Source: an uncultured Actinomycetes bacterium
GTDB taxonomy: Bacteria > Actinomycetota > Actinomycetes > Nanopelagicales > Nanopelagicaceae
Reading direction: 5' to 3'
Assembly (NCBI GenBank): GCA_903895995.1
Contig: CAITVX010000011.1
Span: forward strand, 1 to 32,960
Length of the DNA stretch: 32,960 nt
A model generated the notes under the pieces. That model worked only from the letters and a program-made list of their open reading frames with translations, had not been told where the DNA came from and made no database searches. How positions within the stretch are numbered: the first letter of the stretch is position 1; every line of letters begins with the position of its first letter. Both the position numbers and the translations under genes were made by a program. Of this stretch, positions 3,080-23,078 are shown in pieces.

Positions 3080-3086
3080 AAGGGTG

Positions 3087-3092
3087 ATCTTA
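3087..3092 (-). promoter_or_regulatory. Putative -10 box of leaderless crtB mRNA (TAAGAT)
   Basis: On the minus strand TAAGAT is followed by 7 bases (CACCCTT) and the ATG of crtB. No Shine-Dalgarno sequence is seen. Confidence 0.4.
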
Positions 3093-3172
3093 GTGAATTA
3101 CTTTCTTCTTTCACGCTCAACCCTCAAGGATTGATAGAGAGTGGCGCTCTCTGGAATCCCACATTTTCCTTA

Positions 3173-3259
3173 TACGGTTTACCTATTCCCACGGTCTGTG
3201 AGCCGACATTTCACACGGGGTCGCAATCACCCCCGATAACAAAATCAGGAAGGTCCCTC
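3173..3259 (+). promoter_or_regulatory. Promoter and structured 5' leader of the NCS2 permease gene
   Basis: TACGGT (3173-3178, or TATACG at 3171) can serve as a -10 box, giving a leader of about 75 bases. Within it are two consecutive small stems. TGTGA (3197-3201) pairs with TCACA (3211-3215). GGGGT (3217-3221) pairs with ACCCC (3229-3233). A good ribosome binding site AGGAAGG (3247-3253) lies 6 bases before the ATG at 3260. The leader does not show the pattern of the classical purine riboswitch that I would expect, so a regulatory role is only a possibility. Confidence 0.4.
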
Positions 3260-5250: not shown

Positions 5251-5259
5251 AAAAACTCT

Positions 5260-6744: not shown

Positions 6745-6752
6745 ATCTTCCT

Positions 6753-7829: not shown

Positions 7830-7835
7830 GCGGTA

Positions 7836-7845
7836 AAGGTACCCT
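7836..7845. promoter_or_regulatory. Overlapping divergent -10 boxes for crtE and metF
   Basis: Only 24 bases separate the crtE and metF start codons. TACCCT (7840-7845, plus strand) lies 8 bases before the metF ATG, and TACCTT (7836-7841, minus strand) lies 6 bases before the crtE ATG. The two hexamers overlap by two bases inside the palindrome GGTACC. Both messages would be leaderless and their polymerases could not bind at the same time. Confidence 0.45.
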
Positions 7846-7853
7846 GCATCTCT

Positions 7854-8744
7854 ATGGTTACGCCTGTTGAGAGCACCTTCGCAAGGAAGGCCACGATCTC
7901 CGTCGAGCTCTTTCCGCCGAAAGATGGCGAAGGGGAGGCAAAACTCTGGGCTGCTGTCGAGAGCCTGAAAGAGCTCCACCCTGATTTTGTCTCTGTGACC
8001 TATGGAGCAGGTGGCAGCACTCGAGATCGAACGATTCGAATCGCTGAAGAGTTCACCTCTCGCACTGGGGTTTCTACCGTCGCCCACCTCACATGTGTTG
8101 GGTCAACAAAGAGCGAACTCCTAGAAATTTTGCGTCACTACAAATCTGCAGGCATCACTAGCGTTCTCGCATTACGAGGAGATCCAACTGGTGGACCAAG
8201 CGCTCCATGGGTCACAACACCCGGCGGCTTTGACCATGCTGATCAACTCGTTGAACTTGCAGTGCACGAAGGTGGATTTACAGTGGGGGTGGCAGCATTT
8301 CCAGATGGGCATCCTGCATCTTACGGAGATCTCAATCTCGATGTAGATACCTTGATTCGAAAAGAGAAGCTTGGTGCAACATTTGCAACAACTCAATTCT
8401 TCTTTGAATTTTCTGCATATGAGCAATTAGTTGATTCACTGGAAGCAAAAGGATCAAAACTTCCTATCATCGCCGGAATTCTTCCGATCACAAATATCAA
8501 ACAGCTTCAGCGGATGGCCGAGCTTTCAGGCATACCCATTCCTTCAAAGATCTCAGATAAATTTACATCCCTTGCCGATGATCCAGATGGCGTACGCAAG
8601 CTTGGCATAGAACTTGCGACGCAACTTTCGCGCGATCTCCTTGATTTTGGGGCGCCTGGTCTCCATTTTTATACGATGAACACCGCAACTGCCACAATGG
8701 CGATTGCGAAAAATCTTGGCCTTAATAATCGTGAAGAGAGATAA
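7854..8744 (+). CDS. metF: Methylenetetrahydrofolate reductase MetF
   Basis: This 296-residue FAD enzyme reduces 5,10-methylene-THF to 5-methyl-THF, the methyl donor for methionine synthesis. Recognisable segments are the N-terminal SVELFPPKDGEGE with the conserved acidic residue of the active site, VSVTYGAGGSTRDRT (about residues 47-61), LRGDPTGG for folate/FAD contact, and the C-terminal GAPGLHFYTMN. The length and the TIM-barrel-like series of strands are normal. The ATG at 7854 is fixed by the divergent crtE start 24 bases away. The gene is followed with overlap by a CDP-alcohol phosphatidyltransferase, but no pathway link is evident. Confidence 0.93.
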   Translation: MVTPVESTFARKATISVELFPPKDGEGEAKLWAAVESLKELHPDFVSVTYGAGGSTRDRTIRIAEEFTSRTGVSTVAHLTCVGSTKSELLEILRHYKSAGITSVLALRGDPTGGPSAPWVTTPGGFDHADQLVELAVHEGGFTVGVAAFPDGHPASYGDLNLDVDTLIRKEKLGATFATTQFFFEFSAYEQLVDSLEAKGSKLPIIAGILPITNIKQLQRMAELSGIPIPSKISDKFTSLADDPDGVRKLGIELATQLSRDLLDFGAPGLHFYTMNTATATMAIAKNLGLNNREER

Positions 8745-9357
8745 TTTCTTCGCTCAATGGAGCGAACTTCATGGTGGCGCAACGGTATCTGGCGTAGTCC
8801 GGGGTTGGCTCACAATCTCATACGCTCTCGTTAAACCTTTGGCGCTGATGAGAATCTCACCCAGTGCAATCTCGCTCCTTGGTTTACTCTTTGGAGTTCT
8901 GACATGGATACAGTCAGAAACTATTTTTGGTCTCATCTTCCTTGCCCTCTCCCTTATTGCAGATGGGATAGATGGCTCCCTGGCGATCATTCGAGAGCGC
9001 GTGAGCACGTGGGGTGGACACCTTGATTCAGTTATTGATCGTGTGGTCGAGTTCTTCTGGGCGCTGACTTTTGTGCGGATCGGCGCGCCAGTAATTGTGG
9101 TTGGCATTGCATGGTGTGCGGCGCTCACTCAAGAATATGTGCGTGCTCGCGCGGCAGGACTTGGTTATCGAAGTATTGAAGTAATTACCGTATGTGAGAG
9201 ACCTGTCAGAGCAATTCTCCTTGCCTTTGCAATGATTGCTCATCTTTCACACCATCGTGGATTGAACGAAGTAGCGTGGATCTGGATGGCCCTACAAGTT
9301 GGTTCGCTAGTGGTGGTCCTTCGCGATGCCTACGCCGCCTTGCGCACGAATAATTGA
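8731..9357 (+). CDS. CDP-alcohol phosphatidyltransferase family membrane protein
   Basis: This protein of about 208 residues has around six membrane segments. It carries the CDP-alcohol phosphotransferase signature DGIDGSLAIIRERVSTWGGH with the downstream LDSVID. All four metal-binding aspartates and both glycines are in register. The arginine of the usual D-G-x-x-A-R is isoleucine here, which I believe also varies in some actinobacterial paralogues. Enzymes of this family join a CDP-activated lipid head (usually CDP-diacylglycerol) to an alcohol such as glycerol phosphate or inositol phosphate. The alcohol is unknown. I choose GTG 8731, which overlaps the metF end by 14 bases. TTG 8704 and 8716 are alternatives. 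Its last 51 bases overlap the end of the CrtD-like gene on the opposite strand. Confidence 0.8.
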   Translation: MKRDNFFAQWSELHGGATVSGVVRGWLTISYALVKPLALMRISPSAISLLGLLFGVLTWIQSETIFGLIFLALSLIADGIDGSLAIIRERVSTWGGHLDSVIDRVVEFFWALTFVRIGAPVIVVGIAWCAALTQEYVRARAAGLGYRSIEVITVCERPVRAILLAFAMIAHLSHHRGLNEVAWIWMALQVGSLVVVLRDAYAALRTNN

Positions 9358-10845
9358 TTCAGCAACTAACTCACCACTAATACCGACAAGTGGTAAACCA
9401 CCACCTGGGTGTGCTGAACCACCGACGCAATAAAGATTTTTAATATCGCTCGTATTCTTCGCCCGAAGAAATGCCGCTCTCTTCCCATTACTCGATGTTC
9501 CATAGATAGATCCACCTGGCGCACCTGTTGAAAGTTGAAGATCGAGTGGAGAGCGAAATTCCATGAGATCAAGTCGCTCGGAGACTCTTAACCCCAAGGC
9601 ATCGAGTTTTGCAATGAGATGATCAGCATATTTCTTAGGATCCGCGCTCCAGTCCCAACCGACCCCAGGTTCATGGCGCGGGGCATTGACCAAAACAAAC
9701 CATGCCTCTTTATTCTCACCTCGCACCATTGTCGGATCCTGTGGTGCGCAGATATAGATTGTCGGATCATCAACCGGGTTTTTCTCTGTGAAGATTTGAT
9801 CAAATTCACGCTCATAATTCTCTGGGAAATAAACATTGTGATGCTTCATGAGTGGAGGAGCGCCTTGGATCTTTGAATTATCTAGACCGAGAAGAAGAGA
9901 GAATCCGGCGAGTGATTTCTCTGCCTTTGCAAGCTTCTTACGCTCACTCTTTGCTGCCCGTTCTTGAGGTGCAATCAGTGAGTTAAAAGTAATCTCTGCA
10001 TCAGCATTCGAGATGATGTAATCAGCGAGGTGTGTGGTCCCGTTTACGAGAACCCCGGTTGCGGTACCCGAGTGAGTCAAAATCTTATCCACGGGGGTGT
10101 TGAGATGGATCGTTACACCAAGCTCTTCACACCTTTGCCCGAGGGATTGCGCGAGTGTTCCAATTCCACCTTTGACGTGCCAAGCCCCAAAGGTTATTTC
10201 AACAAAAGCAATCGTTAAAAGAACTGCAGGAGCCTTACGCGGATCAGAACCTGTATAAGTTGCATACCGTTGGATGATCTTCTTTAAATAAGGATTAACT
10301 GTGTATTCCGAGGTGATTGAATCGAGCGTCTGCATGGGAGAGATCTGCTGAAGGTCTTTTAAGAAGCCCTTACGACGAAGTAAGGCAGGAATTGATGCAA
10401 GTTCAGATTCAATAAATGGCCCTCGTGCAACATCCCACATCGCCTCAGCACGTTGCAGAAGCGCATGCCAATCATCGCCAGTCTTATTACCAAGCACACG
10501 GTCCATCTCTTCGCAGATTTTAGGAAGTGAGAGATTGGCAAAGTCGAGAGATGTTCCATCTGCAAAATGGTAGACAAAGGCTGGATCAACAGGCACAAGC
10601 TCTTTCACCAGCTCTAGTCGTTTGCCAGTCTTCTTAAAGAGATCTCGATAGACCGCAGGGATTGTCAGAAGTGATGGGCCAGTATCAAAGGCATAATCAC
10701 CGATCCACTCAGTTCTGCATTTACCACCGACAGCATCACCAGCTTCAAAGATTTCGACTTCTAGCCCAGCGCGAGCGAGTCTGGCCGCTGCAGAGAGTGC
10801 TCCCATCCCTGCACCAACAATTATTACCTTCTTTGGAGCGCTCAT
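9307..10845 (-). CDS. CrtI/CrtD-family carotenoid desaturase (possible C-3',4' desaturase)
   Basis: This second carotenoid FAD oxidoreductase is 512 residues long. It has the dinucleotide-binding motif VGAGMGALSAAARLARAG near the N-terminus, then GGKCRTEWIGDYAFDTGPSLLTIP, and the C-terminal signature LYCVGGSAHPGGGLPLVGISG. It differs clearly from the neighbouring CrtI. The C-R-T-E-x-x-x-x-x-x-F-D-T-G-P segment reminds me of CrtD-type 3,4-desaturases that act on hydrated acyclic ends. The CruF-like hydratase in the same operon supports that role. A carotene ketolase-like or CrtN-like role is not excluded. The gene begins with a TGATG overlap with the glycosyltransferase. Its last 51 bases are antisense to the end of the CDP-alcohol transferase gene. 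Confidence 0.85.
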   Translation of the reverse strand: MSAPKKVIIVGAGMGALSAAARLARAGLEVEIFEAGDAVGGKCRTEWIGDYAFDTGPSLLTIPAVYRDLFKKTGKRLELVKELVPVDPAFVYHFADGTSLDFANLSLPKICEEMDRVLGNKTGDDWHALLQRAEAMWDVARGPFIESELASIPALLRRKGFLKDLQQISPMQTLDSITSEYTVNPYLKKIIQRYATYTGSDPRKAPAVLLTIAFVEITFGAWHVKGGIGTLAQSLGQRCEELGVTIHLNTPVDKILTHSGTATGVLVNGTTHLADYIISNADAEITFNSLIAPQERAAKSERKKLAKAEKSLAGFSLLLGLDNSKIQGAPPLMKHHNVYFPENYEREFDQIFTEKNPVDDPTIYICAPQDPTMVRGENKEAWFVLVNAPRHEPGVGWDWSADPKKYADHLIAKLDALGLRVSERLDLMEFRSPLDLQLSTGAPGGSIYGTSSNGKRAAFLRAKNTSDIKNLYCVGGSAHPGGGLPLVGISGELVAESIIRAQGGVGIAKDHH

Positions 10846-11930
10846 CAGTTAACCCTACGGCCTCTCCACTCTAAGGTGCCAAGAGAGCGTCTCCTATAAG
10901 ACTCTGCAATGAGGGCAATCAATGCAAGAACAGCGATCGGATGTGCAATGGTATTTGTCAGCGGTGATCGAGTTCTGCGTGCTGCAAGCAGGTGAGTAAG
11001 AGCTACGGCAGCGAAGGGGATTATCGCAAGGGGATAACCAGCTACTATCAAAATAATTGGGAGTATCTGGGTTGCAAGGAGTAGTGAAACCGTCAGGAGA
11101 GTCCCGATCGGTCCGCCAAAGGCTTTCCAGAGCGATTTTGTATAACCAGTAATAAGCTCATTATTACTTTCATACATTCTGCATCGTGCCACTGCACTTG
11201 CATCTGCAACTCCACCTTTGTAGCCACTCTTTGCCAGGAGCCTCGCAATCGATAAATCTTCCAGAATTTCATTGCGGACAGCGCTGTGGCCATTGATCGC
11301 CTCGTATGCTGATCGTTTTACAATAAAGAACTGTCCATTTGCGATAATCATTGATGCTCGTCTACCCGATTCAGCAAAGCGAAGTGGCACTGAGGTAAGC
11401 CATGACCATTGGAGAAGTGGCTGAACTAACTTCATCAAGAGTGAATTTCCTTCTTCTGCTGGATATGGTGAGAGGAAATCCCAACCAAGTTTCTCCATGG
11501 CAGAGATTGATGATGAGATAGCTTGAGGTGAGAGCCTTACATCAGCATCAATAAATACTAAATACTCTTCCTTCGATGCGGCAGCGAGTTGAGAACAGGC
11601 AAAGGGCTTGCCCAGCCAACCATTTTCTAGAGGATGACCAATAATCGTTTCAATACGAGCCCCAAAGGATTTGAGAATAAGTGGTGTCTTATCTGCGGAA
11701 GCATCATCTAGTACTCGAATTCGCAGATCTGCAAGACCAGCGGAGGAGATGCAAGATTCAATTACTTCATGAGCGTTCTTCTCTTCATTGCGCATCGGAA
11801 TTAAAATCGCGATTGAGCGCGAAATCAAAGTATCTTGAGGCGCAATGACCCTCACCAAGAAGTAATTTGATAGTGAGATGAGCAATCCACCACACGAGAG
11901 TATGGTGAGAGTTGTTAAGAGAGAGTGCAT
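10845..11930 (-). CDS. Family 2 glycosyltransferase, carotenoid type (CruC/CruG/CrtQ-like)
   Basis: This 361-residue membrane-bound GT-A glycosyltransferase has an N-terminal anchor helix (about residues 5-25). The nucleotide-sugar domain begins with SIAILIPMRNEEKNAHEVIE and VLDDASADKT, and the metal-binding DAD motif is in VFIDADVRLS near residue 135. A typical acceptor-side NEILEDLSIARLLAKSGYKG follows, with the E-D of the catalytic base. The last 100 residues hold about three more helices. This layout matches glycosyltransferases that sugar-coat hydroxylated carotenoids, and the gene sits inside a carotenoid operon between CruF-like and CrtD-like genes. The sugar and the exact acceptor are unknown. 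It starts 25 bases after the cruF-like stop, with no obvious ribosome site. Confidence 0.82.
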   Translation of the reverse strand: MHSLLTTLTILSCGGLLISLSNYFLVRVIAPQDTLISRSIAILIPMRNEEKNAHEVIESCISSAGLADLRIRVLDDASADKTPLILKSFGARIETIIGHPLENGWLGKPFACSQLAAASKEEYLVFIDADVRLSPQAISSSISAMEKLGWDFLSPYPAEEGNSLLMKLVQPLLQWSWLTSVPLRFAESGRRASMIIANGQFFIVKRSAYEAINGHSAVRNEILEDLSIARLLAKSGYKGGVADASAVARCRMYESNNELITGYTKSLWKAFGGPIGTLLTVSLLLATQILPIILIVAGYPLAIIPFAAVALTHLLAARRTRSPLTNTIAHPIAVLALIALIAESYRRRSLGTLEWRGRRVN

Positions 11931-11955
11931 GCGGTTTGGTGGCTTCTAGAGGCGT

Positions 11956-12768
11956 TCAGTAATTATCAGGTCTGCCGAAGCGCAATACAAAGAAGTATGG
12001 AGCGAGGATGAGACCGAAGGCAACTCCTCCTACAAGTGCAACCCCAGGCCGGTTGAAGAAGAAGAGATTGCCAACAATTCCGGAGAAGAGAGTCCATCCC
12101 AAGAAGATATTAGGGATTGCAAGGCTTGCGCCGTGCTTCTTTCGACCTTTAGGTAGCGTCCAATGCAAAAGTGCCATCAAGCCCATCCCTGCCAATAGCC
12201 ATCCAGCGTTATTAGAAAGTGGAATCTCTTTCACTAAGGGAGTTGATGCTCCTGTAAAACTCCAGCTCCATCTGTGCGCATCAACCAACTGTGGATCGAG
12301 AAAGAGGTCCCATGCCATCAAGCCAAGGCCTCCGTAGAGAAAGACCCAGCTCTTGCCGACCTTCCTTGCTGCGATCAGAAGTGGATAGGCGAGCATCATC
12401 CATGCAAAGGGGACGAGCAAGGGCACATCTGCTATCGAGAATCCAAGTGAATGATCGTACTTATAAGTACCAAATGGCCAACCGGTTTTACTGCCAATAA
12501 TTTCTACAGCCAAGGCATATGCAAAGGTAAGAAATAGAAATGTGAAGGCGAATCGTGCACCAAAGGCAAAGAGGGAGTGCAGCACCATTACAGCAGCTGC
12601 AGAGTAGACAGTACAGATTGTGATGATGGTGAGCAGATCGCCATGGACCAATGGGTACGCAATTTGTAATCCAATTGCCAGAGTGAAGAGAATGTAGAGA
12701 AAAGTTGCTTTGTTGCCAGAGAGATTTCGACGGCTTGTAGCGCGCGGTCGATACTGGCGGATACTCAT
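11956..12768 (-). CDS. CruF-like carotenoid hydratase (DUF422 family membrane protein)
   Basis: This 270-residue protein has seven or eight membrane segments and belongs to the carotenoid biosynthesis family that includes CruF (gamma-carotene 1',2'-hydratase) and bisanhydrobacterioruberin hydratase. The hallmark is AVEIIGSKTGWPFGTYKYD (about residues 87-105), with the conserved Glu and P-F-G-x-Y, then VPLLVPFAWMMLAYP. Later MAWDLFLDPQLVDAHRWSW keeps the family Asp residues. It would add water to the acyclic psi end of a carotene, giving a 1'-hydroxyl. Start ATG 12768 (MSIRQYRP) is chosen over a longer reading that overlaps the crtA-like gene. The gap to that gene's stop is 4 bases, with AAGGCAG as a possible ribosome site. 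Confidence 0.86.
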   Translation of the reverse strand: MSIRQYRPRATSRRNLSGNKATFLYILFTLAIGLQIAYPLVHGDLLTIITICTVYSAAAVMVLHSLFAFGARFAFTFLFLTFAYALAVEIIGSKTGWPFGTYKYDHSLGFSIADVPLLVPFAWMMLAYPLLIAARKVGKSWVFLYGGLGLMAWDLFLDPQLVDAHRWSWSFTGASTPLVKEIPLSNNAGWLLAGMGLMALLHWTLPKGRKKHGASLAIPNIFLGWTLFSGIVGNLFFFNRPGVALVGGVAFGLILAPYFFVLRFGRPDNY

Positions 12769-12772
12769 AGAT

Positions 12773-13444
12773 CTATTCTGCCTTAGTTGGGCTGCTTTTA
12801 TGAGAGAGGATTGCAAAGCGGGCGAAGAGTTCTTCTGAATACCATTGAATCTCTGATGTAAGCCGAATCGCCTCCTGATGGGCCTCACCCTTATAAGCGA
12901 AAGCTCGTAGATCTGCCTGGGATCTCCAATGGGAGAAGGTTCCTTGAAGGCCGATCGGTGCTTCACCTATTCCAATTGCCCGTACTAATCCAGGTGCCTT
13001 ATGTAAGGAGTCAGTAACCGAAGGGACTGCTCGCCAGAATCGAAGGTTGTGATTCCACCGAATCTTTGCGCGCGTGATTGCAGCGATTTCGCCATCCCAT
13101 TTACCCTCATATAAGGCCGAGAAAGGTTCTGCACCACCCCATAGCCCATGTGATGAGAGTGGAGCGAGGGTATAGATCTCTTCACTCACTGCGAACTTTC
13201 TCCATTGCTTAACGGGTGCAGAAGCGGTGAGACTTTCTAATTCTCCATCACTTTTTACCAAGAGAGCCCAGGTTCGCGTATCAGCATCGCGGGGAGTAAA
13301 TCTCTCGCCGGTCCCAGTTCCTAAGAGTTTAAAGAAGCTCACGTGAGAGTTCTTTCGCAGGGTTCTACGGTCGAGCGCCATATGCACGAGCGCTCGCCCA
13401 ACGCTTCGTCGTTCAATCTTCCAGATGAAGAGATAGATCTTCAT
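12773..13444 (-). CDS. CrtA-like (spheroidene monooxygenase-like) protein
   Basis: This 223-residue soluble or membrane-peripheral protein resembles spheroidene monooxygenase CrtA, a haem enzyme that adds a 2-keto group to acyclic carotenoids. Features seen are SFFKLLGTGTGERFTPRDAD near residue 39, the repeated W...W framework, and the C-terminal FSHWRSQADLRAFAYKGEAH followed by IQWYSEELFARFAI. These match the conserved C-terminal region of CrtA, including H-x-x-A-I and W-Y-x-E-E-L-F. I cannot prove the haem ligand. The start is ATG 13444, overlapping the stop of the hydrolase gene in ATGA. The position before the CruF-like gene supports action on an acyclic carotenoid end. Confidence 0.8.
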   Translation of the reverse strand: MKIYLFIWKIERRSVGRALVHMALDRRTLRKNSHVSFFKLLGTGTGERFTPRDADTRTWALLVKSDGELESLTASAPVKQWRKFAVSEEIYTLAPLSSHGLWGGAEPFSALYEGKWDGEIAAITRAKIRWNHNLRFWRAVPSVTDSLHKAPGLVRAIGIGEAPIGLQGTFSHWRSQADLRAFAYKGEAHQEAIRLTSEIQWYSEELFARFAILSHKSSPTKAE

Positions 13445-14229
13445 GCTTGCGCAGTCGTAAATTCGATCTCTGCAATAACTTCTGGCGCACGGTCCCACAT
13501 AGGAGCATGTCCACATTGGGGAAGTAAAACCCACCTTGCATGTGCCGGTACTAAGGATCGCTCTTGAGAATATTGAGCAGGTAAAGTGTTGTCGGTATCG
13601 CCGAAGAGAATAGTTACCGGAACACGTGCATCAATCTCTTTATCAAAACGTAATCCAAGCATTGCATCCCACGCAGGAAAGTAACCGCTCGCTGTGCCGA
13701 TAGCTTTTGTAGCATCTACACATATCTGTAATGGAAGCGATTCCCATTGTGGGCTCACCTGAGAGAAACCAAGCTTTCTTGCCCAGCGAAAACGTAGAAG
13801 TTGTGGTGCAACAACGTGTGTTGTAGATGCCATATAGCGAGAAACCGCACCAAGTGGTGCACGTTTACTCTCAGGAACCAGCCATAGACCCGCAGGCGCT
13901 ATCCCGACAAGCGTTCGAATTCGCGTGGGCGCAGCAGCTGCCATTTCGAGTGCTGCCCATCCGCCGAGTGAGTTTCCGGCAACGTGAAAAGTTTCGAATC
14001 CCCATGCACGCATCTGGGCAAGTAGTAGCGCAGCTAGCGATGGGGGATCCATACGCGTGCCACCCGGTAATTTGCTAAACCCATGGCCAGGAAGATCAAC
14101 CGTTATAACTTTAAATCGTTTCGACAGCTCTGGAACTACAAGTTGCCAGGCGGTATGAGATGAGCCCATTCCATGAATGAGCAATAGTGGTTCGCCTTCA
14201 CCACGAATCTCATGCCACAACTCCATCAT
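13441..14229 (-). CDS. Alpha/beta hydrolase, first gene of carotenoid modification operon
   Basis: This 262-residue single-domain alpha/beta hydrolase has the oxyanion segment LLLIHGMGSSHTAW (about residues 15-28), VDLPGHGFS, and the nucleophile elbow GNSLGG with the catalytic Ser near residue 90. An acid candidate is FGDTDNTLP, and the C-terminal His is in PQCGHAPMWDRAPE. The triad therefore looks complete. The substrate is unknown. As first gene of a five-gene carotenoid operon it may act on a carotenoid ester or acyl group, but it could also be a housekeeping esterase. ATG 14229 (a second ATG follows at once) has TAAACT 6 bases upstream, so the operon probably begins with a leaderless message. 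Confidence 0.85.
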   Translation of the reverse strand: MMELWHEIRGEGEPLLLIHGMGSSHTAWQLVVPELSKRFKVITVDLPGHGFSKLPGGTRMDPPSLAALLLAQMRAWGFETFHVAGNSLGGWAALEMAAAAPTRIRTLVGIAPAGLWLVPESKRAPLGAVSRYMASTTHVVAPQLLRFRWARKLGFSQVSPQWESLPLQICVDATKAIGTASGYFPAWDAMLGLRFDKEIDARVPVTILFGDTDNTLPAQYSQERSLVPAHARWVLLPQCGHAPMWDRAPEVIAEIEFTTAQA

Positions 14230-15078: not shown

Positions 15079-15393
15079 TTATTCGATGTGGCGATTGCAG
15101 TACACACGACCATCAGGACCGACCTCTGAATGAACACAGTCGACACCAAGTTTATCGAAGGAACCATCTCCGAACTGTGCGCGATAGGCGAGTGCAAGCA
15201 AGACGCGCAGATTAATATCTGGCCCCGACTGAATACTGAATGCTCGTGCCATGCGTGAAATAGTGTTTTCAATAACTTTTTCAGTATGTGCAGTTTCGCG
15301 AGCTATAGCGCCATTGGAAAGGCCATCACACATGTGTTGGGCAACCAGGTTTTCAAAAGGCGTGAGTTCACGCATCAATATTTTGATATCCAT
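15079..15393 (-). CDS. Small LuxR/GerE-type HTH regulator with Cys/His tail
   Basis: This 104-residue protein is little more than a LuxR-type DNA-binding domain. LTPFENLVAQHMCDGLSNGA followed by IARETAHTEKVIENTISRMA (about residues 10-49) matches the four-helix GerE fold, but no receiver or sensor domain precedes it. The C-terminus carries C86, H88, C99 and H102 (C-x-H-x10-C-x2-H), a possible metal-binding knuckle. I chose ATG 15393 because AAGGAAG lies 9 bases before it. A TTG at 15402 sits directly against that site. It diverges from the cytochrome b operon across about 210 bases containing a dyad, so it is a natural candidate regulator of that operon. This is an inference from position. 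Confidence 0.8.
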   Translation of the reverse strand: MDIKILMRELTPFENLVAQHMCDGLSNGAIARETAHTEKVIENTISRMARAFSIQSGPDINLRVLLALAYRAQFGDGSFDKLGVDCVHSEVGPDGRVYCNRHIE

Positions 15394-15545
15394 GTCAACC
15401 AACTTCCTTGCGAAGAACTAGAACTCTCTCCAAGTTCTATGGACCTCTGCATCCTCATTATGCTCCTAATTGAGTGCTAGCCCAAGCATTTTCGACCAAC
15501 TCCTCACTAAAAAAATTTAGATCAGGAGTACCTTCACGAGGAGAA

Positions 15546-15603: not shown

Positions 15604-15783
15604 ATGAGAAATTTCTTAGAAATAAGTCTGAACCACCCTGCCCACTACATCACCTTTGGACCGTTTTCGGTCTCAGCGGGCAATCTCTCGATCATCATCG
15701 CAATGATGGTGATCTTTACCCTCGCACTCTTTATGCCATTTCCCAATCATGAAGATCATAAAGTGAAGGGATCAAAGAAATGA
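15604..15783 (+). CDS. Small one-helix membrane protein, cytochrome b partner (59 residues)
   Basis: This short gene encodes 59 residues: a polar N-terminus MRNFLEISLNHPAHYITFG, one hydrophobic helix SIIIAMMVIFTLALFMPFP (about residues 31-49), and a charged tail NHEDHKVKGSKK. A good ribosome site GGAGAGGAG lies 10 bases before ATG 15604. The stop overlaps the cytochrome b start by four bases (ATGA), and the downstream gene overlaps again, so three products are made together. Codon use looks normal for the window. A plausible role is a small structural subunit of the cytochrome b complex, like the single-helix subunits of b6f and bc1 complexes. Sequence similarity to those cannot be claimed. 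Confidence 0.8.
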   Translation: MRNFLEISLNHPAHYITFGPFSVSAGNLSIIIAMMVIFTLALFMPFPNHEDHKVKGSKK

Positions 15784-16388
15784 GCGAGAAGATCTCATGG
15801 ACCGGACGCGTTAGAAGTGCAACCTTAGAAAAATTTGAACCTGAAGATCTCCTTCCCGATCATCAGCCGGCATATGTTGCCTCGTGGATCTATGTATTTG
15901 GAGTAGCCACATTGGCGGCGTTCGTGATGCTGATTGCATCAGGTCTCTACTTAACTCTTGAGGGCCCTGCCTGGTGGCATACATCAAGTGTCGGACATTA
16001 TGTGAACTCAGTTCATCTATGGAGCGTCGAACTCTTCTTCGTCTTTATGGTCGTTCACCTCTGGGGAAAGTTCTGGATGGCGGCATGGCGCGGACGTCGG
16101 CTAGCTACCTGGATTACGGGATGCTTGGCCTTCTTCACATCGATCATTACTGGCTTCACTGGCTACATTATTCAATCCAACTTTGATTCACAGTGGATTT
16201 CCACACAAGCAAAAGATGGTTTCAACGCGATGGGTATCGGTGCCTTCTTTAACACTTTAAATACTGGCCAGGCGATTTTGCTTCATGTATCGCTACTCCC
16301 ACTTGTGCTTGGCGCAATCGTGGTTTGGCATGTGATCTTGGTGCGTCGAAGAGGCGTGGTACCGCCTATTGAAGTTGGAGGCGAGTGA
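15780..16388 (+). CDS. Cytochrome b6-type protein (N-terminal cytochrome b domain)
   Basis: This 202-residue, four-helix cytochrome b N-terminal domain carries all four haem b ligands. H79 and H93 are 14 apart in helix 2. H169 and H184 are 15 apart in helix 4. The 14/15 spacing is that of cytochrome b6 rather than the 14/14 of mitochondrial cytochrome b. SGLYLTLEGPAWWHTS and TGFTGYIIQSNFDSQW are the regions next to the quinone sites. The protein stops after helix 4, as b6 does. It would move electrons from quinol across the membrane through two b haems. The usual partners, a Rieske protein, cytochrome c1/f and a PEWY-containing subunit IV, are not next to it. It lies between the small one-helix gene and the gene at 16385, with 4-base overlaps at both ends. 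Confidence 0.9.
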   Translation: MSEKISWTGRVRSATLEKFEPEDLLPDHQPAYVASWIYVFGVATLAAFVMLIASGLYLTLEGPAWWHTSSVGHYVNSVHLWSVELFFVFMVVHLWGKFWMAAWRGRRLATWITGCLAFFTSIITGFTGYIIQSNFDSQWISTQAKDGFNAMGIGAFFNTLNTGQAILLHVSLLPLVLGAIVVWHVILVRRRGVVPPIEVGGE

Positions 16389-17335
16389 AAATGAGACGTG
16401 AACTTTCGTCAGTCGACCCATCTAAAAAATGGAGTGGGCCGGTCCGTGAATACGATCTCATCAAGGAACTTGTCGTTGCGGTAGTTGTTGTTGGACTTCT
16501 TGCACTCACACTTGCCGCTCTCTTTAGTTCTCCTGATGAGAAGGCCCTGACAATGAACTCATGGTCACACGAAGCACCAGCTGATTTTGTTCAAACAGCT
16601 GCTGCCGAACTTGCAGGGACAACGACAAGTGCAAGTTACGGCCCTCCGTACAACAAGAATGGTGAAGGCCAGAACATTGGACCAATAAACCTCTCCAAAC
16701 TTGCTGGAGTAAGAATTCCTATCGATCCTGCAAATAGCTTCGTGATTGAACCTCTGAAGTCACAGAGTGATCCAATAACGACGGCAGCGGTCTCGCAGTG
16801 GTTGGCGGCTCCCTCGAAAGAGCAGAGCAGTTGGGCTAATGCCTATTCTGATGCGCTCCTGAAAGATGGAAAAGCTCTCACTTTGACCGATGCTGCAGGA
16901 ATGTATGGTCCGGTCCCAACCTTGGTTACTGCGCTTTACGCAATGGCTAAGAGCGGGGCACTTGATGGAGCACTTACAACGAGTGACACAACTCTTCCAA
17001 CAAACTTCACCAAGCCACTTCTCTTCTTGGGCGATAGCGGAACATACTTCCCAGATAAGGCCTCTGCGCAGCACTTAAGTGGAGATCAATGGGGCGTTAT
17101 GAATGAGACTGGTTCGTGGCCGGGTCAATCATGGCTATGGCTCTACTCCTTCTGGTATCAGATCGAACCATTTAAATCATCAGGCAATGCAGATATCTTG
17201 GTGATGTCTTTGATGGGGATACTCAGCCTGGGATTGCTACTACTCCCAATTCTTCCGGTGCTGCCAAGAATTCCTTATTGGATCCCTGTACACCGTTTGA
17301 TCTGGAGAAATTGGTACAACAAGAAGAAGAACTAA
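16385..17335 (+). CDS. Membrane-anchored partner protein of the b6-type cytochrome (unknown family)
   Basis: This 316-residue protein has a cytoplasmic N-terminus and one helix (about residues 28-47). A largely extracytoplasmic domain of about 215 residues follows, starting near YGPPYNKNGEGQNIGP and IPIDPANSFVIEPL. A second hydrophobic stretch (about 270-295) rich in Leu and Pro leads to a basic tail. It contains no cysteine, so it cannot bind an iron-sulphur cluster through Cys or a c-type haem, and there is no PEWY motif. It is thus not subunit IV, Rieske or cytochrome f. The aromatic segment SWLWLYSFWYQIEPF before the last helix may sit at the membrane surface near a quinone site. GTG 16385 (GTGA overlap with cytochrome b) or ATG 16391 is the start. 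I judge it the third subunit of an uncharacterised b6-type complex. Confidence 0.75.
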   Translation: MKMRRELSSVDPSKKWSGPVREYDLIKELVVAVVVVGLLALTLAALFSSPDEKALTMNSWSHEAPADFVQTAAAELAGTTTSASYGPPYNKNGEGQNIGPINLSKLAGVRIPIDPANSFVIEPLKSQSDPITTAAVSQWLAAPSKEQSSWANAYSDALLKDGKALTLTDAAGMYGPVPTLVTALYAMAKSGALDGALTTSDTTLPTNFTKPLLFLGDSGTYFPDKASAQHLSGDQWGVMNETGSWPGQSWLWLYSFWYQIEPFKSSGNADILVMSLMGILSLGLLLLPILPVLPRIPYWIPVHRLIWRNWYNKKKN

Positions 17336-18081
17336 GCGAGGACGAATGTCTTCAACAGCGTAAATGCCGAGAGGCTAAAGAGCAGATAAGCAAAGGAGCT
17401 CTTGAGCAACTTGGCATTTACCTTTCCACTGCGTTGCGAAGCTAGCCGTGAGATAACGATCGCGACGAGGGCGATGACGATCGGCGTCTTCCAGTCGACG
17501 ACATGCCAATTGCGATAGCGCTCCAAGAACGAGGTCGTGCAGTTCATGGTGATAATTAAAAGTGAAGTTCCTGCAGCCTTATTTTGAGGCGTGTTATAGA
17601 AGAGAACCAGCACAGGTATGGCGAGGAAACCACCGCCGATTCCAAAGAGTCCAGTCAGTGATCCGATGATGAGGGATACCAGAATCAAAACGGGAAGTGA
17701 CATTCGATGTTCGGGATCTGCAGTAAGTGGGCCCCTGAGCATGGATGCTCCTGCAACCACTAAGACGATAGCGAAACCTGTATGAAGAACTTTGACATTG
17801 ATATGGCTAGCTAAAGCTGTCATCGAGAGCGTTGTTACTAAGCCGATTCCCCAAATTGAGACCGCTTCACGTACTAGTACTTCTTTCGTCGTGAATTTAG
17901 GGATAACTCCCGAGAGTGCAGCAAGCCCTACAATCACAAGAGCTGCGATCGTTGCCTGCTCATTGGTGAAGTGGAAGATATAGAGAAGTATTGGGACTGA
18001 GACCATCGCCCCACCTGCGCCTACGAAGCCAAGGACCGAGCCGATAAATGCGCCAGCTAAGAGGGCCTCAAGAATGATCAT
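17332..18081 (-). CDS. TauE/SafE (TSUP) family membrane transporter
   Basis: This 249-residue protein has about eight membrane helices. It shows the internal duplication typical of the family: GSVLGFVGAGGAMVSVPILL (about residues 13-32) in the first half and GSLTGLFGIGGGFLAIPVLV (about 135-154) in the second. TSUP proteins export or import small sulphur-containing or organic anions such as sulphite, thiosulphate or sulphoacetate. The substrate here is unknown. I chose ATG 18081 (MIILEALLAG), with GAGGATGG before it. Longer readings run back into the LexA box. It ends tail to tail with the cytochrome partner gene, sharing the four bases CTAA. Confidence 0.88.
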   Translation of the reverse strand: MIILEALLAGAFIGSVLGFVGAGGAMVSVPILLYIFHFTNEQATIAALVIVGLAALSGVIPKFTTKEVLVREAVSIWGIGLVTTLSMTALASHINVKVLHTGFAIVLVVAGASMLRGPLTADPEHRMSLPVLILVSLIIGSLTGLFGIGGGFLAIPVLVLFYNTPQNKAAGTSLLIITMNCTTSFLERYRNWHVVDWKTPIVIALVAIVISRLASQRSGKVNAKLLKSSFAYLLFSLSAFTLLKTFVLA

Positions 18082-18145
18082 GGAGCCATCCTCGCAGAGT
18101 CGACGCCCCTCTGTGGGAGCCTGAGCGCTATACGCAGCCGCCTTG

Positions 18146-18158
18146 CCACTGTCAGTGG
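18146..18158. promoter_or_regulatory. Dyad CCACTG-T-CAGTGG
   Basis: A perfect 6-bp inverted repeat with a one-base centre lies between the TSUP gene and the SOS operon, 12 bases from the LexA box. It could be a second operator. There is no further evidence. Confidence 0.25.
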
Positions 18159-18165
18159 AGGAGGC

Positions 18166-18171
18166 TATCTT
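18166..18171 (+). promoter_or_regulatory. Putative -10 box of the SOS operon (TATCTT)
   Basis: TATCTT ends 8 bases before the ATG at 18180 and touches the left edge of the LexA box. This places the expected transcription start inside the box, at or next to the start codon. Confidence 0.45.
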
Positions 18172-18188
18172 TCGAACATATGTTCGAA
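18171..18188. promoter_or_regulatory. LexA-binding SOS box
   Basis: TTCGAACATATGTTCGAA is a perfect 18-base palindrome. Its core TCGAAC-N4-GTTCGA is the established actinobacterial SOS box (mycobacterial consensus). It controls the operon of the DUF6504 protein, a DnaE-type polymerase and DinB. The start codon ATG 18180-18182 is part of the palindrome, which is unusual and fits a leaderless message fully blocked by LexA. Confidence 0.92.
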
Positions 18189-18554
18189 TCAACCCATACC
18201 CCAGAGACCCCAGCCATTCCAGCCGTTCCAGTCGTTCCAGCTGTACTCGCCCCAGAAGGGGAGCCTGTTGAGTTCCTCTACAAGGGCAAGCGCTTTCATA
18301 TCCATGCCATCGTTTCGCGTTGGCGCGAATCCGGCGGATGGTGGAACCGGATCGATGATGGAGAGAGAGCCCATCATCAGAGACATCTTGAGCAATCTAT
18401 CTTTGACGATGGAGCTCGCGCGATCTGGAGAGTAGAGGCGGCCCCTGTTGGTGCGCTCGCTACCTTCGAGATAGAACTTGATGAGATCACCGGCAGATGG
18501 CAGGTCCGCCCAACATCTCGCCCAACATCAGGGCCAACACCAGGGGCCTTCTAA
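18180..18554 (+). CDS. DUF6504-type protein, first gene of SOS mutagenesis operon
   Basis: This small 124-residue protein has a core (about residues 28-105) of EGEPVEFLYKGKRFHIHAIV, SRWRESGGWW and WRVEAAPVGALATFEIELDE. It matches the DUF6504 domain that accompanies Y-family polymerases in many Actinobacteria. The core is flanked by repeats. An N-terminal Pro-Ala-Val linker is encoded by 9-base units (TTCCAGCCG type). The tail RPTSRPTSGPTPGAF comes from 12-base units. No catalytic motif is visible. It may bridge the polymerases or the sliding clamp, a role that ImuA' and ImuB play in mycobacteria, but this is inference. The only possible start is ATG 18180 inside the LexA box. The stop lies 2 bases before the dnaE start. 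Confidence 0.8.
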   Translation: MFESTHTPETPAIPAVPVVPAVLAPEGEPVEFLYKGKRFHIHAIVSRWRESGGWWNRIDDGERAHHQRHLEQSIFDDGARAIWRVEAAPVGALATFEIELDEITGRWQVRPTSRPTSGPTPGAF

Positions 18555-18556
18555 AA

Positions 18557-21500
18557 ATGTTTACCCATCTCCACCTTTCAAGCGGGTACTCCTTTAAATA
18601 TGGAACCGCACAACCCGACGCTCTTGTAGCTCGTGCTGCTGAAAATGGAATGGGGGCGATCGCTCTTACTGATCGCGACGGTATGGCTGGAGCAATTACC
18701 TTTGCACAAAGTTGCGAGGCTCATGGGATAGCACCGATCCTTGGAGTCAACCTTAGTTTTATCCAGAAGAAGTATCGAGTCACCTTACTTGCCCAATCAG
18801 GGAAATTGCCAGCTCTCTACCGTCTTATTACTGCAATGAATCGAAGCAACAATGAGAACCTCTTAACATATGAGATTCTTAAAGAGTATTCCGAATACTC
18901 TTCACAGCTCTTCTTACTACATGGCCATGAATCACAGCTGGCGCAGACCATTGCATCGCGTAAATATGATTCGGCGCTCTCTATCTATAACTCAACCCAA
19001 GATCTCTTTGCAGAACAAATAATCGAATGCACATCACACCTTGTACGCGGAGATGGCCCACTCTCCACCCCTTATGCAGCGCGGGCTCTTGGATTTGCTC
19101 GTGACCATAAACTTCCTGCTGTTCTTACCAATGCTGCACGAATGCTCAATCGAGCTGATGGTCCTGTTGCTGATGTCTTAGATGCATCAAGACTTTTGGT
19201 GCCACTTCATCAGAGCCGCGTTGAACGTAGCAATAGCGAGGGCTATCTCAAGAACGATACCGAGATGCGCTTTGTAGCCGATGAGATTGCACGGATGGCT
19301 GGCGAGAGAGATGGAGGCACCCTCTTAGCTCAGACTGAATCCTTTGCACAGATGTGCCATCTCTTGCCTAGACGAGATATCGGTATTGGAGGAGTCCACC
19401 TTCCAGAGAGCAGCGTTGTTGGCGCTAAGAACCATGCCGAAATGAGTGCCCAGTTACGCAGTAGGGCCGAGGCTGGGCTATCTAAACGCTACTCGTCGGC
19501 ACAATCAGTTGATGCATCAATACGTCTTGAAGAAGAGCTAGCAACGATCAGAACCCTCGGCTTTGAATCCTATTTCCTCACCGTTGCCGATATTACAGAT
19601 ATGGCACGCAGTAGAGGGATTCGCGTTGCAGCACGCGGTAGCGGTGCAGGCTCACTGACATGTTATCTCTTAGGAATATCTGGCGTTGAACCTATGAGTC
19701 AAGGACTTCTGATGGAACGTTTCTGTTCAACGCTAAGAGGAGAGCTCCCCGATATTGATATCGATGTTGAATCTGCACGTCGCTTAGAGATCTATGATGC
19801 AATATTTGAGAAGTATGGTCCCGAACGTACAGCGACTGTTGCAATGGTCGACACTTATAGAGCACGCCATGCAATTCGCGATGTCGGTGCAGCACTTGGA
19901 ATATCCCCGATGGAGATCGATCTGATCGCTAAATCTATGCCACATATTCGGGCTCGTAATATCGGTAAGGCACTTGAAAATCTTCCAGAGCTCAAACACC
20001 TTAAGCTCGATACTCCCATCATGAAAATGGCGATCGAACTCGCCTCTCGCATCGATGGCCTACCGCGCCACCTCTCGATGCATCCATGTGCAATCGTTCT
20101 CTCTGATGCAAAGCTCTTAGATGTCGCTCCCACATTGCGCAATCCAGGTAACTACCCGATGGTCTACTTCAACAAAGATGATGTCGAAGCAATCGGTCTT
20201 CTCAAGCTTGATGTGCTGGGCGTACGGATGCAATCTGCTATCTCTTACGCCCTCTCTGAGATAGAGCGAGTAGAAGAATCTCCCATCGATATTGATCTCA
20301 TTCCACTAGATGACCCCAATACCTTTGATCTCATCAAATCAACCAGGACGCTCGGCATCTTCCAAGTAGAGAGCCCTGGCCAGCGCGAACTTGTTGGCAA
20401 ATTTGCCCCCTCAACATTTACAGATCTGATTATTGATATCTCACTCTTCCGACCAGGCCCTGTGAAGAGCGACATGATTACTCCCTTTATTAACACTCGT
20501 CATGGCCATCGCTCTCGCATGACATTGCATCCAAAACTTGATCCCATTCTGGATGAGACAGAGGGCGTGGTTGTCTTTCACGAGCAAGTTATAAGGCTTA
20601 TCTCTGTCATAACAGGCTCCTCTCTCGCAGAGTCAGATGAACGCCGTCGCCAACTCGGTACTTACGAGAGCCAACAACTCGTCTGCGATTGGTTCTATCC
20701 CACCGCCCTTGCACAAGGTTTTGATATGAACGTTGTCGATAAGGTCTGGGAAGTTCTTCGAGCCTTTGCCTCATTTGGTTTCTGCAAGGCGCATGCCGCT
20801 GCCTTTGCACTACCTACATATCAATCTGCATGGCTTAAGGCGCACCACACTGCTGCATTCATCGCAGGAGCGCTGACACATGATCCAGGCATGTACCCAA
20901 AGCGCTTAATTCTCGATGAAGCTCGCCAATGGGGGATTGCGATAGCTCCTATCGATATCAATCACTCAGATCGAACATTTCGCATTGAAAAAATTAAGGC
21001 AGATTCACCCCATCTTTCAAGGGAGCCATATCTTGCACCAGATCTAGCCAGCACAGGACCCTCGCTCAATCTCCCTGATGCTCGTGGATATGCAATTCGA
21101 GTTGCGCTCAGTGAGATTCAAGGAATTAGTAGCGGTGAGATAGGGACCATTATCCAAGCTCGTCCATATCTTGATCTCGCTGATTTTGTAATGAGGTCTG
21201 GTTCTGCCTATCCCACAACTCAAGCACTCATTCTTGTGGGTGCCTTTGATCAATTACATAACTTGAGTAAAGAGCCAGTAGAAGGATCGCTCAATCGTCG
21301 AGATCTTCTCCTTCATGCACAAGATCTCTACAAATTATCTACCTCTAAAAAAGGAAATCTCAGTAGCAATCAATTAACTCTTGGGCTCACTCCGCCACCA
21401 CTTGAATCAACAGGCTTGCCGCACCTGACACAAGCAGAGAAGATCTTTCATGAAGTAGATCTGACTGGCATGGATATCTCTCATCATATGCTTGAGTTCT

Positions 21501-21868
21501 ACGGAGATTTTCTCAACCACATTGGAGCGATTCGATCTTCTGATCTCATCCATCAACGTTCAGGGGCCACTGTTCTCGTTGCTGGAGTGAAGGTTGCACT
21601 TCAAACTCCACCGGTACGTTCTGGAAGACGGGTCATGTTTCTTACCCTCGATGATGGTCATGGTTGTAACGACGCCACATTCTTTGAAGATGTTCAAGAT
21701 AGTTGTGCAGCACTGCTTTACAGCTCTTGGCTCTTCTTAGTCAGGGGAGAGGTCCGCAGGACAGGGCCTCGCGGTGTATCGATTCGCGCAACAAAGGCGT
21801 GGGAGTTAAGTGCTTCTTATAACAAGTGGCGTAATCTCAACTCTTATGAACGAGCAAGCGGTGAGTGA
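18557..21868 (+). CDS. dnaE2: DnaE-type DNA polymerase III alpha subunit, SOS-controlled (DnaE2/error-prone type)
   Basis: This 1103-residue C-family polymerase has an N-terminal PHP domain with HLHLSSGYS, but TDRDG in place of TDHDG, so the metal site looks partly lost. The palm holds PDIDID with D401 and D403, and LLKLDVLG with the third acidic residue D552, so the polymerase site is intact. HHH, clamp-region and C-terminal OB segments follow (VLVAGVKVAL near residue 1010). The protein lacks a proofreading exonuclease. Placement under a LexA box with dinB shows it is the damage-induced, mutagenic paralogue rather than the main replicase, though the replicase is not in this window to compare. 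ATG 18557 follows the DUF6504 stop by two bases. The end overlaps dinB by 23 bases. Confidence 0.9.
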   Translation: MFTHLHLSSGYSFKYGTAQPDALVARAAENGMGAIALTDRDGMAGAITFAQSCEAHGIAPILGVNLSFIQKKYRVTLLAQSGKLPALYRLITAMNRSNNENLLTYEILKEYSEYSSQLFLLHGHESQLAQTIASRKYDSALSIYNSTQDLFAEQIIECTSHLVRGDGPLSTPYAARALGFARDHKLPAVLTNAARMLNRADGPVADVLDASRLLVPLHQSRVERSNSEGYLKNDTEMRFVADEIARMAGERDGGTLLAQTESFAQMCHLLPRRDIGIGGVHLPESSVVGAKNHAEMSAQLRSRAEAGLSKRYSSAQSVDASIRLEEELATIRTLGFESYFLTVADITDMARSRGIRVAARGSGAGSLTCYLLGISGVEPMSQGLLMERFCSTLRGELPDIDIDVESARRLEIYDAIFEKYGPERTATVAMVDTYRARHAIRDVGAALGISPMEIDLIAKSMPHIRARNIGKALENLPELKHLKLDTPIMKMAIELASRIDGLPRHLSMHPCAIVLSDAKLLDVAPTLRNPGNYPMVYFNKDDVEAIGLLKLDVLGVRMQSAISYALSEIERVEESPIDIDLIPLDDPNTFDLIKSTRTLGIFQVESPGQRELVGKFAPSTFTDLIIDISLFRPGPVKSDMITPFINTRHGHRSRMTLHPKLDPILDETEGVVVFHEQVIRLISVITGSSLAESDERRRQLGTYESQQLVCDWFYPTALAQGFDMNVVDKVWEVLRAFASFGFCKAHAAAFALPTYQSAWLKAHHTAAFIAGALTHDPGMYPKRLILDEARQWGIAIAPIDINHSDRTFRIEKIKADSPHLSREPYLAPDLASTGPSLNLPDARGYAIRVALSEIQGISSGEIGTIIQARPYLDLADFVMRSGSAYPTTQALILVGAFDQLHNLSKEPVEGSLNRRDLLLHAQDLYKLSTSKKGNLSSNQLTLGLTPPPLESTGLPHLTQAEKIFHEVDLTGMDISHHMLEFYGDFLNHIGAIRSSDLIHQRSGATVLVAGVKVALQTPPVRSGRRVMFLTLDDGHGCNDATFFEDVQDSCAALLYSSWLFLVRGEVRRTGPRGVSIRATKAWELSASYNKWRNLNSYERASGE

Positions 21869-23078
21869 AGAGCGAGAGAAGGAACTCACCATTCTCCATG
21901 TCGATATGGATGCTTTCTACGCCTCTGTTGCAGAGAGGGATGATCCGACCTTAAAAGGGAAAGCGGTCGTCGTTGGTATGGGTGCTCGCGGTGTTGTCTC
22001 CTCTGCAAATTATGCAGCGAGGAAACTTGGCGTTCGATCTGCAATGCCATTAGGCCAGGCACGCAGACTCGCACCTCGCGCTATCTTCGTTCCGGTCAAT
22101 ATGGAGCGAAATGCCGAAGTCTCAAGCCATATCATGGAGATCTTTCAAGCATTTACCCCTCTCGTTGAACCCATTTCATTGGATGAAGCATTTCTTGATG
22201 TCACCGGAAGTCGAAGACTTCATGGATCTGGAAGAGAGATCGGTGCAAAAATTCGTGCACGTATTGAATCTGAAGAAGGCATAACCTGCTCTGTAGGAAT
22301 CGCAGGTTCAAAATTTATCGCCAAACTTGCATCGACCTATGCAAAGCCAAATGGAATGCTCGAGATTCATTCGGATCGAATCCTGGAATTTCTTCACCCG
22401 CTTCCGGTGAATGCAATGTGGGGGGTTGGACCAAAGACAAATGAAGAGTTGCAGAAGATTGGACTTCGCACAATTGGGGATATCGCAAAGACTCCACGAG
22501 CGACTCTGATTCGAGCACTCGGTCAATCTGCCGGAGAGACCCTCTACGAACTCTCGTGGGGCCGTGATTACCGAAGCGTGACTCTGGATGAACCTGATAA
22601 GAGCATTGGTGCTGAAGAGACATTTCTGATTGATCTAGATAATCATGATGAGATATTGAAAGAGTTGCTTCGCATGGTTGAAAAATCTTCGCAGAGACTT
22701 CGAGATGCCGGTCTTGTTTCAAAGACTATTTCCATGAAGATTCGATTTGCAGATTTCACAACGATTAGTCGTTCAAAGACCGTTCCACTTCCTATCAGCG
22801 GCGTTCAGGAGTGTTACGAAGTTGTTCGCACCCTCTATACCGCTCTGGGGCTAGATCGAGCGAGAATCCGATTAGTGGGCGTCTCACTAGAAAATCTCAG
22901 CGAGGGCTCTGGTTCACCCCAGCAGCTCCTTCTCGGTGAGCGTGAAAAGGGTTGGAGAGAGGCGACACAAGCGATGGATGCCGCTACTCGTCGATTTGGG
23001 TGTGGCTCCGTTCGCCCTGCGCGCTTGGTCACACCCGATGGTCCAGATGATCCAGGGGATGAGGATTCGCCAGAATAG
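21846..23078 (+). CDS. dinB: DNA polymerase IV, Y-family (DinB)
   Basis: This 410-residue translesion polymerase has HVDMDAFYASV with catalytic D20, SLDEAFLDV with D113 and E114, and a complete helix-hairpin-helix segment (MWGVGPKTNEELQKIGLRTI). The little-finger domain ends with RFADFTTISRSK and VRLVGVS-like strands. All acidic residues are present, so it is active, unlike ImuB-type pseudo-polymerases. QQLLLGE near residue 360 is a possible clamp-binding motif, and the acidic tail PDGPDDPGDEDSPE is disordered. I chose ATG 21846. GTG 21861 is also possible. The start lies inside the end of dnaE, so translation is probably coupled. The third gene of the SOS operon. Confidence 0.93.
   Translation: MNEQAVSEEREKELTILHVDMDAFYASVAERDDPTLKGKAVVVGMGARGVVSSANYAARKLGVRSAMPLGQARRLAPRAIFVPVNMERNAEVSSHIMEIFQAFTPLVEPISLDEAFLDVTGSRRLHGSGREIGAKIRARIESEEGITCSVGIAGSKFIAKLASTYAKPNGMLEIHSDRILEFLHPLPVNAMWGVGPKTNEELQKIGLRTIGDIAKTPRATLIRALGQSAGETLYELSWGRDYRSVTLDEPDKSIGAEETFLIDLDNHDEILKELLRMVEKSSQRLRDAGLVSKTISMKIRFADFTTISRSKTVPLPISGVQECYEVVRTLYTALGLDRARIRLVGVSLENLSEGSGSPQQLLLGEREKGWREATQAMDAATRRFGCGSVRPARLVTPDGPDDPGDEDSPE

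What the first reader, a model, noticed from the sequence alone, without database searches (positions are those of the whole stretch)
15604..17335. Three-gene b6-type cytochrome complex without Rieske, cytochrome c or subunit IV
The operon encodes a one-helix 59-residue protein, a b6-like cytochrome with four intact haem ligands (14 and 15 spacing) and a cysteine-free membrane-anchored protein with a large outer domain. All three genes overlap by four bases. None of the normal quinol oxidase partners is next to it, and the partner protein cannot carry Cys-bound clusters or haem c. This suggests an uncharacterised quinone-linked redox module, perhaps an electron shuttle or a coupling or sensing device. 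The partner belongs to no characterised family that I recognise.
Basis: partly seen in the sequence, partly recalled or inferred. Interest (0 to 1): 0.75.

Follow-up and report, generated by a model that had tools for sequence, protein, structure and literature searches.

The report
Rieske-less cytochrome b6-like three-gene module
Many actinobacteria carry a small, always-together three-gene membrane complex built on the two-haem cytochrome that normally works with an iron-sulphur partner, but here that partner is missing and its place outside the membrane is taken by a protein domain with no detected relative; what it does is unknown.

Summary
Three ORFs (59, 202 and 316 aa) overlap by 4 bases at 15604-17335. 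The middle one is a genuine b6-type di-haem cytochrome b. The module is not local: all three genes stay together in every uncut locus found by similarity, and at least 568 stretches in public genomes encode the third protein. In one genome both copies are a single ORF in the order small-b6-large; in another b6 and the large protein are fused. They are therefore parts of one complex. No fourth gene is conserved beside it, and the genome also has a normal ctaE-qcrCAB/ctaCD set, so this is an extra complex. Haem-cradle residues are kept; Rieske-dock and Qo signatures are lost. Best reading: a two-haem transmembrane electron wire linking menaquinone at the inner face to an unknown partner at the rebuilt outer face. 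In high-GC actinobacteria the operon often carries DevR/OsdR-like hypoxia boxes. The reaction itself is not shown.

The parts
15604..15783 (+). small subunit P0001, 59 aa, one transmembrane helix; conserved N in the helix and C-terminal PFP
   Evidence: fused in front of b6 in L160/L161
15780..16388 (+). b6-like di-haem cytochrome b P0002, 202 aa
   Evidence: hhalign to Rieske-type b6 P 1.8e-19
16014..16016 (+). haem ligand H79
   Evidence: invariant
16056..16058 (+). haem ligand H93
   Evidence: invariant
16284..16286 (+). haem ligand H169
   Evidence: invariant
16329..16331 (+). haem ligand H184
   Evidence: invariant
16385..17335 (+). large subunit P0003, 316 aa, two transmembrane helices flanking a large outer domain; no Cys
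16457..16525 (+). P0003 residues 25-47, helix resembling subunit IV helix E, beginning with Y23-D24...K27-E28
16541..17122 (+). P0003 residues 53-246, helical outer domain without a detected relative
17189..17239 (+). P0003 residues 269-285, second helix, tentative helix F equivalent
   Evidence: weak
15079..15402 (-). divergent 107-aa protein, LuxR/GerE-like helix-turn-helix below the Pfam cut-off; candidate local regulator, not part of the complex
   Evidence: (beside the module in 15 of 30 loci)

Best explanation
The operon encodes a three-subunit (in some species one-polypeptide) di-haem membrane complex that descends from the cytochrome b6/subunit IV core of a Rieske-cytochrome b complex and has lost the Rieske protein, cytochrome c and the third helix of subunit IV. 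The cytochrome carries two b haems across the membrane. The quinone site at the inner face appears to be kept. The outer-face site that docks the Rieske protein and splits electrons has been rebuilt: two outer loops of b6 are shortened, and a ~190-residue helical domain grown between helices E and F of subunit IV would cover it. Without a Rieske cluster, Q-cycle bifurcation is not possible, so the complex should work as a linear wire between menaquinone at the inner face and one other redox partner at the outer face (an exported small molecule or protein, or a second quinone). Shown here: gene set, fusions, ligand and loop conservation, co-existence with qcrCAB. Inferred: haem loading, inner-face quinone use, descent of P0003 from subunit IV, the outer partner and the direction of flow. 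In many high-GC actinobacteria it is probably switched on by a DevR/OsdR-type hypoxia regulator; in the window's lineage a small LuxR-like gene takes the adjacent position.
For: Strict three-gene linkage. Natural b6-large fusion and small-b6-large fusions. Haem cradle kept: G41, G55, G72, H79, W81, H93, R107, W111, G114, G128, Y129, H169, P174, H184 and R189 shared with Rieske-type b6. Outer-face signatures lost: 'LPWDQ' replaced by Q132-x-N134-F135, about 11 residues missing in the cd loop, the ab loop shortened, and the invariant R before the third ligand replaced by Q164. Helix E match, with invariant E28 and near-invariant K27 in the place of the K-E/K-D that begins helix E in several subunit IV sequences. 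Single clade on a very long branch apart from Rieske-type b6 (100/100). Complete ctaE-qcrC-qcrA-qcrB and ctaC-ctaD elsewhere, and QcrB in nearly all module-bearing relatives. DevR-like boxes: 13 of 45 high-GC operons versus 31 of 541 control upstream regions, Fisher P 5e-6. USP genes near 10 and DevS-like kinases near 9 of 50 high-GC loci.
Against: No biochemical data. The helix E match is one short helix, and the C-terminal match is not significant alone (P 0.04). The DevR-box test counts related operons as if they were independent and the motif was adjusted after a first look (one search used stricter forms with little excess); low-GC loci show no such signal. The outer domain has no conserved metal ligand and no detected relative, so an outer redox partner is an assumption. 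Inner-face quinone use rests on a K-E motif and recalled bc1 structure.
Confidence: 0.55

Rival explanations
1. It is a bc-type quinol oxidase that uses a Rieske protein and cytochrome c encoded elsewhere in the genome, with P0003 only a decorated subunit IV.
For: Four Rieske-domain matches exist in the genome, one of them QcrA; subunit IV-like helix E.
Against: The Rieske-docking cd loop is shortened and the LPWDQ and PEWY signatures are absent. The genome already has its own qcrCAB. No Rieske gene recurs beside the module: clustering of flanking genes and Pfam scans of flanking ORFs showed none.
Confidence: 0.1
2. It is an energy-conserving dehydrogenase: an outer-face donor reduces haem bL and menaquinone is reduced at the inner face with proton uptake (redox-loop direction). 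This is a directional special case of the best explanation.
For: Inner-face features kept, outer face rebuilt with conserved polar residues (K145, D146, N149, Q164 of P0002; E241, Q248 of P0003).
Against: No catalytic donor subunit (flavin, molybdenum, nickel, iron-sulphur) is linked; the direction of flow cannot be told from sequence.
Confidence: 0.25
3. It is a redox or hypoxia sensor, or a quinone-pool safety valve, rather than a respiratory enzyme.
For: DevR/OsdR-like boxes and neighbouring stress regulators in part of the family; accessory, patchy presence beside qcrCAB.
Against: No signalling domain in any subunit; regulation by hypoxia does not show a sensing role.
Confidence: 0.15

Closest known systems
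Cytochrome b6 (PetB) plus subunit IV (PetD) of b6f and related menaquinol-cytochrome c complexes
   Same: four-helix di-haem domain, ligand spacing 14/15, R-x-x-G...P end of b6, gene order b6 then subunit IV, helix E match
   Different: no Rieske, no cytochrome f/c, no PEWY, short cd loop, two helices instead of three in the second protein, a ~190-aa outer domain, an extra one-helix subunit in front
Actinobacterial QcrB (NF050120) of the bcc-aa3 supercomplex
   Same: weak match over helices B-D (E 2.4e-7)
   Different: 30 bits against a cut-off of 500; full-length QcrB is a separate gene in the same genome
ExtP of the Geobacter selenite/tellurite operon (NF040969)
   Same: short b6-like cytochrome, E 1e-12
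   Different: 48 bits against a cut-off of 290; ExtP sits with a Rieske protein (ExtO) and multihaem cytochromes c (PMC5877670)
SoxC cytochrome b (NF041076)
   Same: P0003 252-308 aligns in the same register to SoxC 287-342 in the members shown; 9 of 65 members match weakly
   Different: E only 0.002 at best, far below cut-off; SoxC is a single full-length cytochrome b

Membership tests
Cytochrome b/b6 N-terminal superfamily (PF13631/PF00033) | profile match over the curated cut-off | tested here: met
   45.2 and 29.1 bits against 27 and 27.2
Cytochrome b/b6 N-terminal superfamily (PF13631/PF00033) | two His pairs and glycine packing for two b haems | tested here: met
   H79, H93, H169, H184, G41, G55, G114 and G128 invariant
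Cytochrome b/b6 N-terminal superfamily (PF13631/PF00033) | two b haems actually bound | not testable with these tools
   needs purified protein
Rieske-cytochrome b complex | Rieske gene in the operon | tested here: not met
   none in the window; no linked gene family in 80 loci
Rieske-cytochrome b complex | Qo signatures (GYxLPWxQ; PEWY) and Rieske-docking cd loop | tested here: not met
Rieske-cytochrome b complex | inner-face K-E/K-D at the start of helix E | tested here: met
   E28 invariant, K27 at least 90%; same place in several subunit IV sequences
Subunit IV (PF00032) | Pfam match | tested here: not met
   no PF00032 hit in 65 members at E 0.1
Subunit IV (PF00032) | homologous helices E and F | tested here: inconclusive
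   helix E P 2.8e-5 against worst control 5.8e-4; helix F P 0.04
Subunit IV (PF00032) | three transmembrane helices E-G | tested here: not met
   two membrane helices in the AlphaFold2 model
ExtP (NF040969) | equivalog cut-off of 290 bits | tested here: not met
   48.4 bits

The most novel reading that the evidence does not exclude
A widespread, never-characterised class of actinobacterial quinone-linked complex in which the Rieske/cytochrome c half of a bc complex was discarded and replaced by a new outer-face domain, turning a bifurcating enzyme into a linear two-haem transmembrane oxidoreductase with an unknown outer substrate, used under oxygen limitation in part of its range.
Probability: 0.4. 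Interest if true: 0.8.

Novelty: new variant of a known kind. Interest (0 to 1): 0.62.

Why it matters
If right, it is an unnamed respiratory-type complex encoded in at least 568 stretches of sampled genomes, including Streptomyces, Kitasatospora, Cryobacterium and freshwater actinobacteria, present in addition to the ordinary bcc-aa3 chain. It would show how a Q-cycle enzyme can be taken apart by evolution while its two-haem core is kept. The cultured hosts make it directly testable.

Tried and rejected
Viral contigs: no relative of b6. Plasmids: no relative of P0003. PDB by sequence with P0003 alone and as a profile: chance matches only. Foldseek and VIA-align with the whole P0003 model and with its outer domain alone: nothing with E below 1, best VIA Z 2.2; absence of a match does not prove a new fold. 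A conserved fourth gene: clustering of flanking ORFs in 80 loci and Pfam scans of flanking genes found none; an iron-sulphur flavoprotein pair beside L051/L052 is local to two close relatives. Pfam SafA on helix 1 (13 of 65 members, E 0.001, below cut-off) looks like a single-helix similarity and was set aside. Boxes for Rex, FNR, CRP, SoxR, NsrR, Zur and IdeR upstream: no clear excess. Promoter/terminator consensus scan: nothing above chance. Literature: no paper found on this module.

Full report
Observation. The middle protein passes the Pfam cut-offs of the cytochrome b/b6 N-terminal families, its best solved relatives are cytochromes b6, and its four haem ligands have spacings 14 and 15. 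P0001 and P0003 have no cysteine. The window belongs to a 1.36 Mb, 39-contig genome estimated 99.9% complete. The genes next to the operon encode a LuxR-like protein, a TauE-type exporter and a DnaE2-like polymerase, not respiratory proteins.

It is a real, widespread module. A search of 100 relatives found strong P0002 matches in 37 of them, including 24 of 31 genomes of the same genus (counted by eye), and all 30 fetched loci have the small gene, b6 and the large gene in that order. In the best 80, the large gene always follows b6, and the small gene precedes it in all 75 that are not cut by a contig end; most junctions overlap by four bases. Hosts include Streptomyces, Kitasatospora, Cryobacterium, Intrasporangium, Terrabacter, Amycolatopsis and Solirubrobacterales. 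In an even sample of the phylum only 11 of 396 genomes have it, so it is patchy. The most divergent copy seen (52% identity, G080) still has a one-helix ORF directly in front.

The three proteins are one machine. In G092 b6 and the large protein are one ORF of 526 aa. In G071 two separate copies are single ORFs of about 640 aa that run small-b6-large. No other gene family is linked: clustering of all flanking ORFs in 80 loci gave only the three genes and ORFs overlapping them at high counts, and Pfam scans of 85, 88 and 91 flanking proteins found no recurrent partner. An iron-sulphur/flavoprotein pair occurs only beside two close relatives.

It is an addition to the normal chain. The genome has ctaE-qcrC-qcrA-qcrB and, next to them, ctaD and ctaC, and QcrB is present in nearly all module-bearing relatives.

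What the large protein is. Sequence libraries give no family and the PDB gives no relative. AlphaFold2 on a 65-sequence alignment gives mean pLDDT 85, with two membrane helices (25-47 and about 269-285) and a helical region between them, much of it above 90. Modelled alone the outer domain has pLDDT 84 and pTM 0.80. Foldseek finds nothing below E 1 for either model. Profile-profile comparison with subunit IV sequences from other actinobacteria (20 used) places P0003's first helix on helix E with P 2.8e-5; reversed templates and other helices reach 5.8e-4 at best. The C-terminal segment aligns in the expected register to the PEWY-helix F stretch but not significantly (P 0.04); 9 of 65 members match SoxC cytochrome b, best E 0.002, and the members looked at individually match one and the same stretch, 287-342. 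Together with the fusions, the large protein is most simply subunit IV reduced to helices E and F with a large insertion between them. This is probable, not proven.

What changed in b6. Compared column by column with 20 Rieske-type b6 sequences, the module keeps the haem cradle but has lost the outer-face signatures: the ab loop is shortened, about 11 residues are gone from the cd loop that docks the Rieske protein, LPWDQ is replaced by Q-x-N-F, and the arginine before the third ligand is replaced by an invariant Q164. New invariant residues appear there (K145, D146, N149). The inner face keeps R107, W111, R189, G192 and P196, and P0003 keeps K27-E28 at the start of helix E, where several subunit IV sequences have K-E or K-D; from recalled bc1 structures this pair belongs to the inner quinone site. 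The assignment of faces and loops also follows established knowledge of bc structures. The module's b6 forms one clade (100/100) on a very long branch.

Mechanism. With no Rieske cluster, one electron cannot be sent to a high-potential chain, so Q-cycle bifurcation is excluded if the complex acts alone. The simplest function for two kept haems, a kept inner quinone site and a rebuilt outer face is a linear electron wire between menaquinone inside and one partner outside. The partner, the direction and the coupling to proton movement are not known; rivals are listed.

Regulation hint. Upstream of the operon in loci above 60% GC, DevR/OsdR-like boxes (GGGMCNNNNGKCCC, at most one mismatch; written after the consensus in PMC5069765) occur in 13 of 45, against 31 of 541 upstream regions of other ORFs in the same loci (Fisher P 5e-6). 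Two cautions: related loci are not independent, and the pattern was loosened after a stricter form had shown little excess. USP genes occur near 10 of 50 high-GC loci and GAF-type kinases near 9; no background rate was measured for these. Lower-GC loci, including the window's lineage, show no such box; there a 107-aa LuxR-like protein is divergent from the operon in 15 of 30 loci.

Verdict. Observation confirmed; interpretation partly supported, with 'no subunit IV' probably wrong. A new variant of a known kind, with a reaction still to be found.

Noticed in passing
window 1561-14229: Carotenoid-type genes (phytoene synthase-like, two phytoene desaturase-like, prenyl transferase, lycopene cyclase-like, judged by eye) lie upstream of the module.
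   Followed up: no
window 15079-15402: LuxR/GerE-like 107-aa protein, below the Pfam cut-off, divergent from the operon and conserved there in 15 of 30 loci.
   Followed up: partly
window 17332-18192: TauE/SafE-type exporter, convergent with the operon; found beside it only in close relatives.
   Followed up: partly
window 18497-23078: DnaE2-like polymerase followed by a DinB-like polymerase, an apparent mutagenesis pair (judged by eye).
   Followed up: no
L051 and L052, downstream of the module: An iron-sulphur flavoprotein gene pair on the opposite strand, in two close relatives only.
   Followed up: partly
L160, L161: Two copies of the module in one genome (G071), each a single fused ORF of about 640 aa.
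   Followed up: yes
L123, L124: One genome (G188) carries two copies of the large gene.
   Followed up: no
L021-L032 versus L004-L008: Two module subtypes (about 65% and 85-92% b6 identity to the window) occur within one genus, both with the LuxR-like gene beside them in most loci.
   Followed up: no
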